From a virus, in IMG/VR virus record IMGVR_UViG_3300034198_003942, positions 1-23,183 of that record: a stretch of 23,183 nt of DNA. One strand, given 5' to 3'. The notes beneath the pieces are model-generated. The model saw only the letters and a program-made list of their open reading frames with translations. It had not been told where the DNA came from and searched no databases. The translations under genes were made by a program, and so were the position numbers. Positions 1,097 to 6,918 of this stretch are shown piece after piece (the first letter of the stretch is position 1; each line of letters begins with the position of its first letter).

Positions 1097-1438
1097 TTAA
1101 GTCTTTGTAATTTCTGGCGTTAGGATAACAAGACCTTCCAACGCACGAATCTTACTAGAGTCGGGTGCTGGTGAAGTCAACTCAATATCGTACAAGTATC
1201 TACCTGCCTGGATATCAGTGGTGTCGCTAGGATCAAGTTTTAATTGCACCTGCCCAGCTGCTGCATCGTATATAGATGCTTGAAAATTTACTGCGGAAGA
1301 CGATTGATATGATTTACGAAACTGGGATCTTACTGTAAAATCAGTCAAATCCATTGGTGTTCCGTCTTGATTTGTGAGCGTAATGATGCTACTAAAAGTA
1401 GTTCCTTGGTCGATCACTAAATTCGAAATTGTTGCCAT
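1097..1438 (-). CDS. Small beta-sandwich-type virion protein (113 aa), function unknown
   Basis: A 113-aa protein. It reads VIDQGTTFSSIITLTNQDG, then PMDLTDFTVRSQFRKS, and later GRYLYDIELTSP. The pattern 'GttF...l....G.p.dLt...v..q.rks ... GrYlYDiel' is typical of small Ig-like or BppU-N-like phage baseplate and fibre accessory proteins; I cannot assign a T4 homologue. It is the first gene of the distal unit. Its ATG (1436-1438) has a GGAGA ribosome-binding site about 6 bases upstream, and a perfect TATAAATA late promoter lies 23 bases before the ATG. It ends one base before the ATG of the collagen-like gene. The coding call is secure; the family assignment is tentative. Confidence 0.75.
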   Translation of the reverse strand: MATISNLVIDQGTTFSSIITLTNQDGTPMDLTDFTVRSQFRKSYQSSSAVNFQASIYDAAAGQVQLKLDPSDTTDIQAGRYLYDIELTSPAPDSSKIRALEGLVILTPEITKT

Positions 1439-1493: not shown

Positions 1494-1516
1494 AAAAAAC
1501 CCTCCGAAGAGGGTTT
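1494..1516 (-). terminator. Rho-independent terminator with UUCG tetraloop
   Basis: On the minus strand an 8-bp stem (AAACCCTC / GAGGGTTT, 1497-1516) closes a TTCG tetraloop and runs straight into a T tract (the A run at 1494-1499 on the plus strand). It starts a few bases after the TGA of the 79-aa gene, so it would end the transcript coming from the adhesin genes. The UUCG loop is an unusually stable hairpin cap common in T4-like terminators. Confidence 0.9.
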
Positions 1517-1519
1517 ATT

Positions 1520-1759
1520 TCATTTCTCGTAGAGAGGTCGTTTATCATCGCCCATCATTTCCCACTTACCTAGTGGACATTTTACGAAAGGCATTAAAAC
1601 TTTTAACGGCATAAAACAGCTGCATTGAGCGCAGGTTCTAGTTGTTTTATTATACTCTTCACAAGTATTACAAATATCCAATCTTGAACGAGTTTCATCA
1701 GTTTCATCGTATGCCTGATAAGCACCAATATCTACATTATCTAAATGTTCGTGTTTCAT
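1520..1759 (-). CDS. Six-cysteine putative zinc-binding small protein (79 aa)
   Basis: A 79-aa protein. Its Cys pattern is CNTC at residues 30-33, CAQCSC at 43-48 and CPLGKW starting at 61. The layout C-x2-C-x9-C-x2-C-x-C-x12-C followed by PxGKW resembles small zinc-ribbon-like proteins found near tail genes of T4-like environmental phages. The metal-binding role is inferred from Cys spacing only. It begins 4 bases after the stop of the third adhesin gene; its ribosome-binding site (AGGA) lies in the last codons of that gene. The TGA at 1520-1522 is followed at once by a strong terminator, so this is the last gene of the fibre transcript. It could be a structural or a host-takeover factor; nothing in the sequence decides. 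Confidence 0.8.
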   Translation of the reverse strand: MKHEHLDNVDIGAYQAYDETDETRSRLDICNTCEEYNKTTRTCAQCSCFMPLKVLMPFVKCPLGKWEMMGDDKRPLYEK

Positions 1760-1763
1760 TTTA

Positions 1764-3284
1764 TCATCCTATTGCTAAAGTTACATAACCACTACCATTA
1801 TTGGATCCAGAACCAGATCCGTCATATGAGAGACTTGATATATATGACGAATTATAGTAGGAAGAACCTCCTCCACCCATACCACCACCTTGACCACAAT
1901 GTGAAGTCATTCCACCACCACCGAACCAACCAGCACCACCTGCGCCACCAGCAGATCCGCAGTTACCGTTTTGGCCACCATAGAATGCAGATCCGTCACC
2001 GCAACCATTTGAAGAACCTGCAGCGTCGATTCCACCTACACCACCAGAGGATTGACTGCCACCTTGTGCAATTCGGTTGGCAGTATTTGTGTTTCCTTGA
2101 CCACCAGCTGGGTATCCACCATGTCCGCTATTTGGAGTATCTCCGTCGCCAGCACCAGCACCAGCACCACCGACTATGTAGTATGTAGATCTATTACCAG
2201 TGTTCAATGGATCGCTAGTACCTGACCAGAAACCAGAGAAGCCACCACCAGTAGTTCCACCGCCACCGCCTGATGGACCACCACCAGGATATCCACCAGC
2301 CACATTACTACTGCCTTGGAAGTTTCCAGTCGCACCAACCACAACATAGTAGTTAGAAGCTGCAGGAATACTAGAGTATGTGCCAGTCATAATAGCACCA
2401 AAACCTCCAGGAGTATTTGATGGACTACTAATACCACCTCTTGCGCCAGCACAAGTTACCCTTAAACTATGAGCATTATGAACAGTCATTGGATAAACAG
2501 TTCCAGCTGATGACAGAGTTACTGTTTGAGTAGTACCAGTATTGTAGTAGGTAGTTCCGTTGACTGTTAGCAATCTCTTAACAGTAGTTATACTGAATGC
2601 ACGATCAGCATAGAAATTATTTGCAGTTGCTCTAACTGTAAAAGATGCAGTCGCTGAAGTATCAGGGAATGTTCCTGTAATTACACCGCTAGTGCTCAAT
2701 GAGAGTCCAGAAGGTAGTGAACCAGAAACTACACTGAATGAAATTGTATTACTATCAGGATCTGAAGCTGATAGCGTAATATTTGCAGAAGCTGCGCCAT
2801 TGAACGATCCCAACGAACCAGCCGATGTTGACCAAACTGGTTCTCTGTCTACTGTTCCAGCTGGATCTAAAATTGAAGATAGTCCTGATGGATTTTGAAC
2901 TCTTATAGAATAAGATGCACCACCAACATAGTTGACTGATGCAGCAGCAGTTGCTGCAGTTAATTGAGCTGAATTTACATAGGTAGTAGATAATGCTCTT
3001 TGAACAGTACTAACACCAGCACCATTAATATAAACAATAGATCCAGCTTTGAATCCTGTTCCATTAATTGTTATTGTTGAATTTTGATCTTGGTTGATCG
3101 TTCCACTAAAAGATGTAATCGCAGGAGGAGTATCTGCAGCAGTCCATCCATTGGCTGTGTAAACTTCCATCAAACCAATGTCTGTGTTAAATCTAATCAT
3201 ACCCTCTACGCCAGTTGGGCGATTTGCAGAACTATCTGCAGGGAGAGTAATTGCTTCTGGTCCAAGAATTGTTGGTTGACCCAT
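1764..3284 (-). CDS. Adhesin paralogue 3: IPT/TIG + He_PIG + glycine-rich tip
   Basis: A 506-aa protein and third of three tandem paralogues. Domain order: fibre-type N-terminus (about 1-52; TILGPEAITLPAD, IRFNTDIGLMEVYTANGW); IPT/TIG-like Ig domain (about 53-150; TITINGTGFKAGSIVYINGA); He_PIG-like domain (about 155-235; SGSLPSGLSLSTSGVITGTF); a linker with VNGTTYYNTGTTQTVTLSSA; then a glycine-rich C-terminus of about 230 residues ending GGGGSSYYNSSYISS and GYVTLAIG. The last resembles Gly_rich (PF12810-type) and polyglycine phage adhesins. Two Cys in the NCG...HCGQGGG region are shared with both paralogues; this copy has an extra CG just before them. Likely a receptor-binding tip protein; the receptor is unknown. 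Its start follows the tandem TAA stops of paralogue 2, with the AGGA site inside that gene's last codons. Confidence 0.85.
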   Translation of the reverse strand: MGQPTILGPEAITLPADSSANRPTGVEGMIRFNTDIGLMEVYTANGWTAADTPPAITSFSGTINQDQNSTITINGTGFKAGSIVYINGAGVSTVQRALSTTYVNSAQLTAATAAASVNYVGGASYSIRVQNPSGLSSILDPAGTVDREPVWSTSAGSLGSFNGAASANITLSASDPDSNTISFSVVSGSLPSGLSLSTSGVITGTFPDTSATASFTVRATANNFYADRAFSITTVKRLLTVNGTTYYNTGTTQTVTLSSAGTVYPMTVHNAHSLRVTCAGARGGISSPSNTPGGFGAIMTGTYSSIPAASNYYVVVGATGNFQGSSNVAGGYPGGGPSGGGGGTTGGGFSGFWSGTSDPLNTGNRSTYYIVGGAGAGAGDGDTPNSGHGGYPAGGQGNTNTANRIAQGGSQSSGGVGGIDAAGSSNGCGDGSAFYGGQNGNCGSAGGAGGAGWFGGGGMTSHCGQGGGMGGGGSSYYNSSYISSLSYDGSGSGSNNGSGYVTLAIG

Positions 3285-3289
3285 TATTA

Positions 3290-4801
3290 TTATCCTATTG
3301 CTAAAGTTACATAACCAGAACCACTTCTAGTTCCGTTGACATAAGAGAAACTAGAAATGTAAGATGAGTTATAGTAAGATGATCCACCGCCACCAGCACC
3401 ACCACCTTGACCGCAGTGCGAAGAACCACCGCCACCACCATACCATCCACCACCACCTGCTCCACCACCATTACCGCAAGTACCTGGAGATCCACCGTAG
3501 AATGCAGAACCAGCAGTCGCACCCTGAACTGTTCCGTCTAGAGATACAGTAGCAGAACCACCAGCGGATTGAGTACCACCTGTTGACACAGCATTTGCTG
3601 AGTTGTAGTTACCAACTTGACCAGTAGGGTATCCACCATCACCACGATTGGATGAAGTGATTGAGGTATCAACAGAGTGAGAAGCACCACCCGCCCCGAT
3701 TAGGTAGTAGGTGGATCTATTTCCAGAGTTCAATGGATCGTTAGTTCCTGACCAGAAACCAGAGAAACCACCGCCACCGCCACCACCGCCAGAACCACCA
3801 GAACCACCTCCTGGATAACCAGACTCTGTTGATGATGGAGAAGTACCAACTACAACATAGTATGTACCTGTTGGAATAGATGAATATGTACCAGTTACAG
3901 AACCGCCATATCCTGCACCAGAAGCAACATTCCACTGCGAGTTTAATGTTCCTGATGCGCCCACGCAAGTTACAGTCAAATTATGTGTGGCATAAACTGT
4001 AATCGGATAAACAGTACCAGCACTAGACAAGGTTACTGTTTGAGTAGAACCAGTGTTATAGTAAGTTGTTCCATTGACAGCCAACAATCTCTTAACTGTT
4101 GCAATACTAAATGCACGATCGGCATAAACAGTATTTGCAGATGCTCTAACTGTAAAACTGCTAGTTCCAGTTGTATCAGGAACAGTACCAGTAATAACAC
4201 CTGAAGAACTCATTGAGAGACCAGAAGGTAGTGAACCAGTAACTATACTAAATGTTATCGCTTGTCCGTCAGGATCAGATGCAGATAAAGAAATATTTGC
4301 AGAAGATCCACCATTCAATGAACCCAACGAACCAGCCGATGTTGACCAAACTGGTTCTCTATCAATAGATCCAGCAGCAGTAAGAACACCTGTCAATCCA
4401 GAAGGGTTTACAACTTTAAGATCAAAGGATGCACCACCAACATAGTTGACTGATGCAGCTGCAGTTGCTGCAGTTAAAGATGTAGAATTTACATAAGTTG
4501 TTGACAGTACTCGTGGCACACCGCTTACACCAGCACCTTCGATCTGAACATAAGATCCAGATTTAAAATTTGTTCCAGTAACAGTAATAGTTGTATTAAT
4601 GTCTTGGTTGATAATACCAGAAATACTACCAACTGTTGGAGGTGCATCAATTGCAGTCCATCCATTGGCTGTATAAATTTCTGCCAAGCCGATAGTTGTA
4701 TTGTAACGCATCATTCCCTCAACACCACTCGGTCTATTTGCCGATGTGTCTGCAGGAAGAGTTATCGCCTGTGGTCCAAGAATTGTTGGTTTAGTTGCCA
4801 T
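3290..4801 (-). CDS. Adhesin paralogue 2: IPT/TIG + He_PIG + glycine-rich tip
   Basis: A 503-aa protein with the same architecture as its two neighbours. It has the fibre N-terminus (MMRYNTTIGLAEIYTANGW), an IPT/TIG-like Ig domain with TNFKSGSYVQIEGAG, a He_PIG-like domain (SLPSGLSMSSSGVITGTVPD), and a glycine-rich C-terminus that includes an uninterrupted run of eight Gly before FSGFW. It ends GYVTLAIG. At DNA level it is a mosaic: 38 bases in the He_PIG region match paralogue 3 exactly, while 51- and 52-base stretches match paralogue 1 exactly. The ATG at 4799-4801 follows paralogue 1's TAATAA with an AGGA site 6 bases upstream, inside paralogue 1's last codons. Probable receptor-binding tip; the role is inferred from domain type and position. 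Confidence 0.85.
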   Translation of the reverse strand: MATKPTILGPQAITLPADTSANRPSGVEGMMRYNTTIGLAEIYTANGWTAIDAPPTVGSISGIINQDINTTITVTGTNFKSGSYVQIEGAGVSGVPRVLSTTYVNSTSLTAATAAASVNYVGGASFDLKVVNPSGLTGVLTAAGSIDREPVWSTSAGSLGSLNGGSSANISLSASDPDGQAITFSIVTGSLPSGLSMSSSGVITGTVPDTTGTSSFTVRASANTVYADRAFSIATVKRLLAVNGTTYYNTGSTQTVTLSSAGTVYPITVYATHNLTVTCVGASGTLNSQWNVASGAGYGGSVTGTYSSIPTGTYYVVVGTSPSSTESGYPGGGSGGSGGGGGGGGFSGFWSGTNDPLNSGNRSTYYLIGAGGASHSVDTSITSSNRGDGGYPTGQVGNYNSANAVSTGGTQSAGGSATVSLDGTVQGATAGSAFYGGSPGTCGNGGGAGGGGWYGGGGGSSHCGQGGGAGGGGSSYYNSSYISSFSYVNGTRSGSGYVTLAIG

Positions 4802-4804
4802 TTA

Positions 4805-6346
4805 TTATCCTATTGCCAATGTAACATATCCATTACCATCTCTGGCTCCGTTGGAGTAGGTGAAACTAGAAATATATGAACTGTTATAGTAAGATGATCC
4901 ACCGCCACCAGCACCACCACCTTGACCGCAGTGAGCATTACCACCACCGCCACCATACCAACCGCCACCACCAGCACCACCTTGGCCAGATCCACCGCAG
5001 TCGCCAGCAGATCCACCATAGAACGCAGAACCAGCACTAGTACCTTGTGTACTTCCGTTAACATTCAAACCAGCAGATCCACCAGCAGATTGAGTGCCAC
5101 CTCCTGGAATTGTCATACTACCGTTGTTACCATTACCTGCAGATCCTGTTGGATAACCAGCATCACCACCTCTAGTTGATCCAGGACTTCCTCCTGCAGC
5201 ACCTGCAGTTAGGTCAGATGAGTGACCAGCACCACCACCTGCTATTAAATAGTATGTAGATCTATTACCAGTGTTCAAAGGATCAGAAGTTCCTGACCAG
5301 AAACCAGAGAAACCACCGCCTCCGTTGGTTTGTGAAACACCGCCACCGCCACCTGGATATCCACCAGTGTTGCTTGATGTAGTTGCACCAACTACAGCAT
5401 AGTATGTTCCTGCTGGAATACTTGAATAAGTTCCTTGAACATAACCACCATAACCAGAAATAGCTGATCCGCTACCATAAACAGTACCACCTTGAGCACC
5501 AGCCATAGATATAGTTAAACTATGAGCAGCATAAACTGTAATTGGATAAACTGTGCCAGCTGAAGAAAGAGTTACAGTCTGCGTTGAACCAGTGTTATAA
5601 TAGGTAGTTCCATTAACTGCCAGCAATCTCTTAATAGTTGAAATACTAAATGCTCTGGCAACACTAATACCAGTTGTGGTTGTTATTGCAGTTACAGTAA
5701 AGGAAGATGTTGCAGTTGTATCAGGAACAGTACCAGTAATAACACCTGAAGAACTCATTGAGAGTCCAGAAGGTAGTGAACCTGATGTTATTGAAAATGT
5801 TACAGATTGAGAGTCGCCATCCGAAGCAGATAGTGATATATTAGCCGATGCGCCACCATATAAAGTTCCTAGAGAACCAGCAGAAGTTGACCAAACCAAA
5901 GTTCTATCAATAGTTCCAGCAGAAGTAAGAACACCAGACAAACCAGATGGATTAACTACTTTAACATCGAAAGATGCACCACCAACATAAGATGTTAATG
6001 AAGCATTAGTAACTGCAGTTAATTGAGTTGCATTAACATAAGTTGTTCCTAAAATTCTTGGAGTATTAGAAACACCAGCACCTTCAATCTGAACATAAGA
6101 TCCAGATTTAAAATTTGTTCCATTAACTGTTAGCGTTGTACTAACATTCTCGTTAATGATACCACTAATAGATGTTATTGCAGGAGGAGCGTCAATAGCA
6201 GTCCAACCAGCAGAAGTATAAACTTCGGCTAATCCAATATCTGTATTGTAACGAAGCATCCCCTGAACTGGAGATGGTCTATTCGCTGAAGTATCAGCAG
6301 GTAACTGCAGTGCTTCTGGTCCAAGAATTGTTGGTTTAGTTGCCAT
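4805..6346 (-). CDS. Adhesin paralogue 1: IPT/TIG + He_PIG + glycine-rich tip
   Basis: A 513-aa protein, first of the triplet in transcription order. Residues 1-52 are the fibre-type N-terminus (ANRPSPVQGMLRYNTDIGLA, then EVYTSAGW). Residues 53-150 are IPT/TIG-like (TLTVNGTNFKSGSYVQIEGA). Residues 151-235 are He_PIG-like (WSTSAGSLGTLYGG ... SGSLPSGLSMSSSGVITGTV). Residues about 280-513 are glycine-rich (MAGAQGG, VQGTYSSIPAGTYYAVVGA, GGGGFSGFW, DCGGSG, HCGQGGGAGGGGSSYYNSSY), ending GYVTLAIG. The layout 'AGAQGG ... VVGA ... GGGGW.GGGG ... GGGGSSY' is that of PF12810-type glycine-rich proteins; polyglycine packing is known in phage gp38-type adhesins. The ATG overlaps the TAA of the S74 chaperone gene by one base. 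The He_PIG domain is the most diverged of the three copies (TTTTGISVARAF replaces NxxYADRAF). Confidence 0.85.
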   Translation of the reverse strand: MATKPTILGPEALQLPADTSANRPSPVQGMLRYNTDIGLAEVYTSAGWTAIDAPPAITSISGIINENVSTTLTVNGTNFKSGSYVQIEGAGVSNTPRILGTTYVNATQLTAVTNASLTSYVGGASFDVKVVNPSGLSGVLTSAGTIDRTLVWSTSAGSLGTLYGGASANISLSASDGDSQSVTFSITSGSLPSGLSMSSSGVITGTVPDTTATSSFTVTAITTTTGISVARAFSISTIKRLLAVNGTTYYNTGSTQTVTLSSAGTVYPITVYAAHSLTISMAGAQGGTVYGSGSAISGYGGYVQGTYSSIPAGTYYAVVGATTSSNTGGYPGGGGGVSQTNGGGGFSGFWSGTSDPLNTGNRSTYYLIAGGGAGHSSDLTAGAAGGSPGSTRGGDAGYPTGSAGNGNNGSMTIPGGGTQSAGGSAGLNVNGSTQGTSAGSAFYGGSAGDCGGSGQGGAGGGGWYGGGGGNAHCGQGGGAGGGGSSYYNSSYISSFTYSNGARDGNGYVTLAIG

Positions 6347-6918
6347 TATTTAACACCCTTTAATTCTTTTACTTGGGCTTCCAATTCTTTAATTGCTTCG
6401 ATTAGCAATGGAACAATTTTTTCGTATTGAACTGTTTTGTAGTTTTCACCTGAACGAGACATTTCTGTATTTTCAAATACCATAATATCAAATGGTGCAG
6501 GTTTAACTGCCTGAGGTAAAACTTTTTCTACATCAGCTGCAAGAACTCCAACCTGAGTTTCTTTATTTGTAAATCCAAAAGACTCAGCCAACTCATTAGC
6601 GTTATATGTAACACCTCTTAGCTGTAAGACTTTTTCCAAAGCATTTGGAATTAACTCTACATTAGTTTTTAATCTCTCATCCGAGTAGTAAGAAGTGATT
6701 GAGTTAATCGCACGAATTTCACCAGCAGTAGTAGACGCTGCAGTACCAACACCAAGACTAGTAAAGGAAGCAGTAATAGAATTATTATTTACAGCTGTTA
6801 CCTCTAACTTATTATCGTTAAGATTAATAAAGTTTGCGTCAATTTCCTGACTCGTTAAAGGAGAGCCTTTGGCAGTACCACCAGTTGGATTCGTAATTCT
6901 TGTTACAATTGTAGTCAT
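6346..6918 (-). CDS. Tail fibre anchor with C-terminal S74 intramolecular chaperone (190 aa)
   Basis: A 190-aa protein. Residues 1-40 hold a fibre N-terminal motif (KGSPLTSQEIDANFINLN) almost the same as that of the tail collar fibre upstream. Residues 78-190 are a Peptidase_S74 intramolecular chaperone domain: YYSDERLKTN, then LRGVTYN, TQVGVLAADVEKVLPQAV, YKTVQYEKIVPLLIEAIKEL. Known S74 domains trimerise fibres and then cut themselves off using a Ser-Lys dyad in SDxRLK; here these are S79 and K84, so cleavage would fall just before S79. The C-terminal helix ELEAQVKELKG is coiled-coil-like. Odd point: only about 78 residues, with little shaft, would remain after cleavage. It starts 26 bases after the collar gene, with AGGA six bases before ATG, and overlaps the first adhesin by one base. 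Confidence 0.92.
   Translation of the reverse strand: MTTIVTRITNPTGGTAKGSPLTSQEIDANFINLNDNKLEVTAVNNNSITASFTSLGVGTAASTTAGEIRAINSITSYYSDERLKTNVELIPNALEKVLQLRGVTYNANELAESFGFTNKETQVGVLAADVEKVLPQAVKPAPFDIMVFENTEMSRSGENYKTVQYEKIVPLLIEAIKELEAQVKELKGVK

What the first reader, a model, noticed from the sequence alone, without database searches (positions are those of the whole stretch)
1764..6346. Three tandem adhesin genes form a recombining mosaic
Copies are about 1.5 kb each with identical domain order. Exact matches switch partner along the gene: copy 2 equals copy 1 over 51 bases (3368-3418 / 4883-4933, glycine-rich end) and over 52 bases (4168-4219 / 5713-5764, He_PIG end), but equals copy 3 over 38 bases (4323-4360 / 2809-2846, He_PIG start), where copy 1 differs. 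Partner switching inside one domain points to gene conversion or unequal crossing-over between the copies. Tandem receptor-binding proteins could let the phage keep several specificities and generate hybrids, an alternative to diversity-generating retroelements.
Basis: partly seen in the sequence, partly recalled or inferred. Interest (0 to 1): 0.7.

Follow-up and report, generated by a model that had tools for sequence, protein, structure and literature searches.

The report
Three phage adhesin genes swapping tips
An uncultured virus of bacteria carries three side-by-side copies of a probable host-attachment gene whose stems stay in fixed order while the tips that probably touch the host are exchanged between copies and related viruses, a neat natural example of a known way in which such viruses may vary their targets.

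Summary
In detail: three intact tandem genes (4805-6346, 3290-4801, 1764-3284, minus strand) of one T4-like phage fragment, and all three exact matches are present. Related contig L005 (about 81% identical over 15 kb) settles the meaning. It has the same three genes in the same order. The first 238 codons are orthologous slot by slot (91-92% nt; paralogs 67-75%), but glycine-rich tips have moved: L005 slot 1 carries a slot-3-type tip and slot 2 a window-slot-1-type tip. Stem and tip trees reject each other (delta lnL 291 and 135). Both swapped tips start in a conserved 34-residue linker and end at codon 520/521, keeping slot-specific last codons, so double crossover or gene conversion fits and simple unequal crossing-over does not. 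Swapped tips differ by dS 0.58-0.66 against 0.18-0.28 for unswapped parts, so they are probably imports from a wider pool, not fresh sibling copies. Similar stems bear fibrinogen-C, laminin-G, F5/8 or Gly_rich_2 tips in other phages. No reverse transcriptase was found. Function as host adhesins is inferred, not shown.

The parts
4805..6346 (-). adhesin slot 1 (copy 1), 513 aa: N-terminal anchor, TIG-like and He_PIG Ig-like domains, linker, glycine-rich tip
   Evidence: ORF; Pfam He_PIG 7e-9, ALK_LTK_GRD 6.5e-5 just below cut-off; stem orthologous to L005 slot 1 at 92% nt
3290..4801 (-). adhesin slot 2 (copy 2), 503 aa, same order of domains; tip type not found in L005
   Evidence: ORF; ALK_LTK_GRD 1.6e-4 just below cut-off; stem 91% nt to L005 slot 2
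1764..3284 (-). adhesin slot 3 (copy 3), 506 aa, same order of domains; stem and tip both orthologous to L005 slot 3
   Evidence: ORF; He_PIG 1.9e-9, ALK_LTK_GRD 1.4e-8 above cut-off; stem 91%, tip 93% nt
5531..5632 (-). conserved linker of slot 1 (KRLLAVNGTTYYNTGSTQTVTLSSAGTVYPITVY), the 5' breakpoint zone of the tip cassette
   Evidence: breakpoints of L005 slots 1 and 2 at alignment codons 257-264 and 268-273
3992..4093 (-). conserved linker of slot 2
   Evidence: alignment
2478..2579 (-). conserved linker of slot 3
   Evidence: alignment
4832..5530 (-). glycine-rich tip cassette of slot 1; its relative sits in slot 2 of L005
3317..3991 (-). glycine-rich tip cassette of slot 2; no close relative in L005
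1791..2477 (-). glycine-rich tip cassette of slot 3; relatives in slots 1 and 3 of L005
4168..4219 (-). 52-nt tract identical to 5713-5764 (slot 1); conversion slot 1 to slot 2 supported by ortholog control
4323..4360 (-). 38-nt tract identical to 2809-2846 (slot 3); slots 2 and 3 homogenised separately in each genome
3368..3418 (-). 51-nt tract identical to 4883-4933 (slot 1); not significant as conversion once the L005 tip is used as control
6346..6918 (-). 190-aa protein with Peptidase_S74 (intramolecular chaperone) domain; upstream neighbour and synteny anchor
   Evidence: Pfam 8.6e-16; 98% identical in L005
6944..8539 (-). tail collar fibre-like protein upstream
   Evidence: phrog_1800, 8.5e-23
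1520..1759 (-). 79-aa cysteine-rich protein directly after the array
   Evidence: phrog_13558, 2e-14; conserved in L005
1497..1516 (.). bidirectional intrinsic-terminator-like hairpin closing the unit
   Evidence: consensus match; 4 found against 3.6 expected, so position is the only argument
1097..1438 (-). 113-aa tail-fibre-assembly-like protein, downstream synteny anchor
   Evidence: phrog_1084 1e-29, phrog_3304 3e-22

Best explanation
The locus is a tandem array of three paralogous tail-fibre adhesin genes in a T4-like phage. Each gene is a slot-specific stem (anchor, TIG-like and He_PIG Ig-like domains) carrying an exchangeable glycine-rich tip. Shown: stems stay in place between related phages, tips are replaced as whole cassettes between a conserved linker and the last eight codons, and short conversion-like tracts homogenise parts of the He_PIG domains between slots. 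Inferred: homologous recombination (T4-type strand annealing between paralogs or with co-infecting phages) does this through conserved flanks; the tips bind host receptors; keeping three stems lets one virion or population carry several specificities while new tips are sampled from a shared pool.
For: Same three-gene array in L005. Stem identity by slot 91-92% against 67-75% between paralogs; tip partner switches abruptly. IQ-TREE AU test: stems reject the tip topology (delta lnL 291) and tips reject the slot topology (delta lnL 135). Two-breakpoint fit places both swapped cassettes at codons 257-264 or 268-273 to 520/521, with slot-specific 3' ends kept. dS: stems 0.22-0.28, unswapped slot-3 tip 0.18, swapped tips 0.58-0.66; stem dN about five to seven times below dS, so the slots are under purifying selection. 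Ortholog-controlled tracts. Same stem with a different tip fold joined at the same place: fibrinogen-C in L013 and L170, laminin-G in L170, L173 and L181, F5/8 C in L178, Gly_rich_2 in L172 and L175. Position beside baseplate genes, a tail-fibre chaperone domain protein and fibre-assembly-like protein. Arrays of two or three paralogs of at least 250 aa at the corresponding place in 19 of 52 non-duplicate contigs.
Against: Only two genomes carry this exact adhesin family, so direction and number of exchanges rest on one comparison; another array family, L092 against L093, is colinear with no tip swap. Receptor binding and presence in the virion are untested. The glycine-rich tip could not be modelled with confidence (pLDDT mostly below 50) and has no sequence match in the PDB or in 50,697 phage records (low-complexity filter on). 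Imports from other phages and old intragenomic duplications with later loss cannot be told apart.
Confidence: 0.72

Rival explanations
1. Ordinary divergence after tandem duplication: the exact matches are just the best conserved parts of three paralogs, with no recombination.
For: The exact matches lie in conserved protein stretches; silent-site test within the window alone is modest for slots 2-3 (P=0.21) and the 51-nt tract fails with a control.
Against: Strongly conflicting stem and tip trees, sharp partner switch, synonymous-only significance of the 52-nt tract.
Confidence: 0.05
2. Assembly artefact: short reads of co-existing strains or of paralogs were joined wrongly at the conserved linker.
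For: Metagenomic contigs only; L004, 99.99% identical, begins at the same base as the window, so it may not be an independent assembly. Paralogs inside L005 share exact stretches of 41-65 nt.
Against: At the linker the longest exact match is 44 nt (L005 slots 1 and 3) and otherwise 35 nt or less, with 14-20 nt between most paralogs; both swapped cassettes return to slot-specific sequence after the tip; the array recurs in independent contigs; all frames stay open.
Confidence: 0.08
3. The three proteins are subunits of one heteromeric fibre tip, not alternative adhesins, and slot identity reflects assembly contacts.
For: Stems are slot-specific, conserved in order and under purifying selection; three copies in several unrelated arrays.
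Against: Tips differ and move between slots, and copy number is two in L013 and others; this does not exclude heteromers whose stems assemble and whose tips differ.
Confidence: 0.25
4. Unequal crossing-over between slots makes the hybrids by expanding and contracting the array.
For: Copy number of arrays varies between two and three among contigs.
Against: Between the window and L005 all three stems and their slot-specific last codons are kept in order, so a single unequal event cannot give the tip pattern.
Confidence: 0.07

Closest known systems
Tandem tail spike genes tsp1-4 of Ackermannviridae (PMC11414711)
   Same: Several adjacent receptor-binding protein genes with conserved 5' parts that fix their place in a complex and variable 3' receptor-binding parts; homologous recombination between neighbours was observed (tsp4-tsp5 chimera)
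   Different: Those are tailspikes in a branched complex with XD domains; here Ig-like stems with glycine-rich tips, closely similar paralogs, and tips that change slot
T-even gp37/gp38 adhesin exchange by recombination between conserved motifs (Tetart, Desplats and Krisch 1998, cited in PMC11414711; not readable here)
   Same: T4-like phages; glycine-rich adhesin tips; exchange guided by conserved flanking motifs (from the cited title and my own knowledge)
   Different: There a single adhesin locus; here three tandem copies. No sequence match to any solved chain, gp38 included, was found
Haloarchaeal hafunavirus tail-fibre adhesins (PMC8651126)
   Same: Glycine-rich adhesin in a hypervariable locus governing host range
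   Different: One adhesin gene per genome in the passages read, no tandem slots
Metaviromic islands and domain mosaicism of phage receptor-binding proteins (PMC3909814, PMC10684548)
   Same: Variable C-terminal recognition domains, including fibrinogen-like and gp38-like, on conserved N-termini
   Different: These compare orthologs between phages; tip movement between paralogous slots is not described in the passages read
Diversity-generating retroelements
   Same: Also diversify phage adhesins
   Different: No reverse transcriptase in six related records; variation here is by whole cassettes

Membership tests
T4-like myovirus structural locus | baseplate wedge genes (gp25, gp6) in the same region | tested here: met
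   phrog_219 E 1e-169 and phrog_261 1.5e-38; gp6 best hits Pelagibacter and Methylophilales T4-like phages at about 40%
Gp38-type glycine-rich adhesin | glycine-rich, variable C-terminal receptor-binding domain | tested here: inconclusive
   glycine-rich tips match Pfam ALK_LTK_GRD but no PDB sequence hit and no confident tip model
Gp38-type glycine-rich adhesin | binds an outer-membrane receptor | not testable with these tools
   no cultured relative; closest named phages share only the stem
Tandem multi-RBP array (Ackermannviridae-like organisation) | adjacent paralogs with conserved N-terminal and divergent C-terminal parts | tested here: met
   window, L005, L013, L087 arrays; not all arrays show a clear N-to-C decline
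Tandem multi-RBP array (Ackermannviridae-like organisation) | homology to Ackermannviridae TSPs (XD and TD domains) | tested here: not met
   Pfam and PHROGs give He_PIG and glycine-rich domains only
Diversity-generating retroelement target | reverse transcriptase nearby | tested here: not met
   PF00078 absent in the window and five related records, which may be fragments

The most novel reading that the evidence does not exclude
A position-locked array: three stems that cannot be interchanged hold fixed places in the virion, while tips are standardised, interchangeable cassettes with the same joints, shared through a population-wide pool and plugged into any slot. A general stem of anchor, TIG and He_PIG with tips of at least five unrelated Pfam families would be a common adhesin system of aquatic T4-like phages.
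Probability: 0.3. Interest if true: 0.65.

Novelty: new variant of a known kind. Interest (0 to 1): 0.5.

Why it matters
Phage host range is often set by the tips of fibres. Here stems and tips of the same genes have visibly different histories, with defined joints, in phages without a retroelement in view. It offers a clear comparative case for testing whether multi-adhesin phages evolve by re-plugging tips between slots, and it predicts where joints lie in relatives with other tip folds.

Tried and rejected
The two first sequence scans for the adhesin and a bacterial genome scan found no other phage with these tips, so the tip comparison rests on two genomes. Tip against named phages: no match. 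Fold search with the model returned only generic Ig-like and cadherin chains, uninformative for the tip. The 51-nt tract as conversion was rejected. Unequal crossing-over was rejected for the tip pattern. Fresh copying from a sibling slot was rejected as the source of the L005 tips on dS, though the first half of the L005 slot-1 tip leans towards its own slot 3 (31 against 16 sites). L172 against L174 suggested slot-true anchors with mixed bodies, but the copies are too diverged for a firm statement. Trojet 2011 on gp38 could not be read.

Full report
Observation. The window is a fragment of a T4-like phage (baseplate genes; nearest named gp6 about 40% identical in Pelagibacter and Methylophilales phages). 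Three intact genes follow one another on the minus strand at 4805-6346, 3290-4801 and 1764-3284. Each has an N-terminal anchor, Ig-like domains (He_PIG detected in slots 1 and 3; slot 2 aligns over the same stretch), a conserved linker and a glycine-rich end matching ALK_LTK_GRD. The three quoted exact matches are all real.

Within the window alone. Runs of matching variable sites are longer than shuffles allow, but conserved protein sequence explains part of it. Counting only silent codons, slots 1-2 keep a signal (P=0.008) and slots 2-3 do not (P=0.21).

The decisive relative. Contig L005 (IMG/VR 3300032236_000551, about 81% identical over 15 kb) has the same array between the same neighbours. 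Over codons 1-238 each slot matches its own counterpart at 91-92% and the other slots at 67-75%. From the linker on, partners change: L005 slot 1 becomes slot-3-like (79% to window slot 3, 82% to L005 slot 3), L005 slot 2 becomes window-slot-1-like (74%), and slot 3 remains true at 93%. Trees of the two halves reject each other's topology decisively.

Joints. The best breakpoints are in the conserved linker, alignment codons 257-264 (slot 1) and 268-273 (slot 2), and for both genes at codon 520/521, after which the last eight codons again belong to the slot. The few informative sites at the 3' end (about four per gene) make this second joint less firm than the first. A cassette replaced between two joints speaks for gene conversion or double crossover and against single unequal crossing-over.

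Age and source. Silent divergence is 0.22-0.28 for stems and 0.18 for the unswapped slot-3 tip, but 0.58-0.66 for swapped tips. The moved tips are thus older than the split of the two phages. They came from other phages or from older alleles, not from a recent copy of a neighbour. Low dN/dS in stems (0.14-0.21) says all three slots are maintained.

Short tracts. With L005 as control, slot 2 of the window carries a slot-1-like piece at codons 198-208 within the 52-nt match (run over codons 190-208: 0 of 5000 shuffles, synonymous only P=0.0004). Part of that longer run arises because L005 slot 2 is itself deviant there. Around codons 148-166 slots 2 and 3 are alike within each genome and different between genomes, the mark of separate homogenisation; L005 slots 2 and 3 share 65 identical bases there. 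The 51-nt match is not significant.

Wider context. Scans with the neighbouring S74 and 113-aa genes gave many syntenic contigs. Nineteen of 52 non-duplicate contigs with enough sequence have two or three adjacent paralogs of at least 250 aa upstream of the 113-aa gene (two of the 19 are near-identical). The families differ, but several share the N-terminal anchor. The full stem recurs with other tips joined after He_PIG: fibrinogen-C (L013, L170), laminin-G (L170, L173, L181), F5/8 C (L178), Gly_rich_2 (L172, L175). In L092 against L093, by contrast, stems and tips are colinear.

Mechanism. Shown: slot-true stems, moved tips, joints, homogenised tracts. Inferred from knowledge of T4-like phages: recombination by strand annealing between conserved flanks, within a genome or during co-infection. 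Inferred from position and domains only: that these are fibre adhesins and that tips choose receptors. No reverse transcriptase was found.

Known or new. Tandem receptor-binding genes with recombining 3' parts are known in Ackermannviridae (PMC11414711), motif-guided adhesin exchange in T-even phages (cited there), and tip mosaicism is general (PMC10684548, PMC3909814). The new element is tips changing place among paralogous slots whose stems and last codons stay put. I call it a new variant of a known kind.

Caveats. Two genomes, metagenomic assemblies, one of the confirming contigs (L004) begins at the same base as the window and may not be independent, and function is untested.

Noticed in passing
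L014:1698-9404, L011, L013:212-6325, L087:7274-9941: Tail-fibre loci of related phages hold inserted sets of radical SAM enzymes (one with a weak B12-binding match), hydroxylase-like and methyltransferase genes; possible modification of fibre proteins or host surface compounds.
   Followed up: partly
L010:7744-9915: A tryptophan-halogenase family gene (Pfam E 8e-95) next to 2OG-Fe(II) oxygenase genes, directly upstream of the S74 gene and a three-gene adhesin array.
   Followed up: partly
L170:3336-11965: Three genes with the same stem but of 266, 520 and 1338 aa (the last cut by the contig end): no tip, a fibrinogen-C-like tip and repeated laminin-G domains.
   Followed up: partly
window 1497-1516: Bidirectional terminator-like hairpin just after the 79-aa gene, apparently closing the transcription unit.
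   Followed up: no
window 1520-1759: 79-aa cysteine-rich protein of unknown function (phrog_13558) conserved directly behind the array in L005, and a weaker match in L170.
   Followed up: no
L005:10500-10620 (codons about 180-200 of slot 2): L005 slot 2 departs from all five other copies over a short stretch of He_PIG, as if imported from an unsampled source.
   Followed up: no
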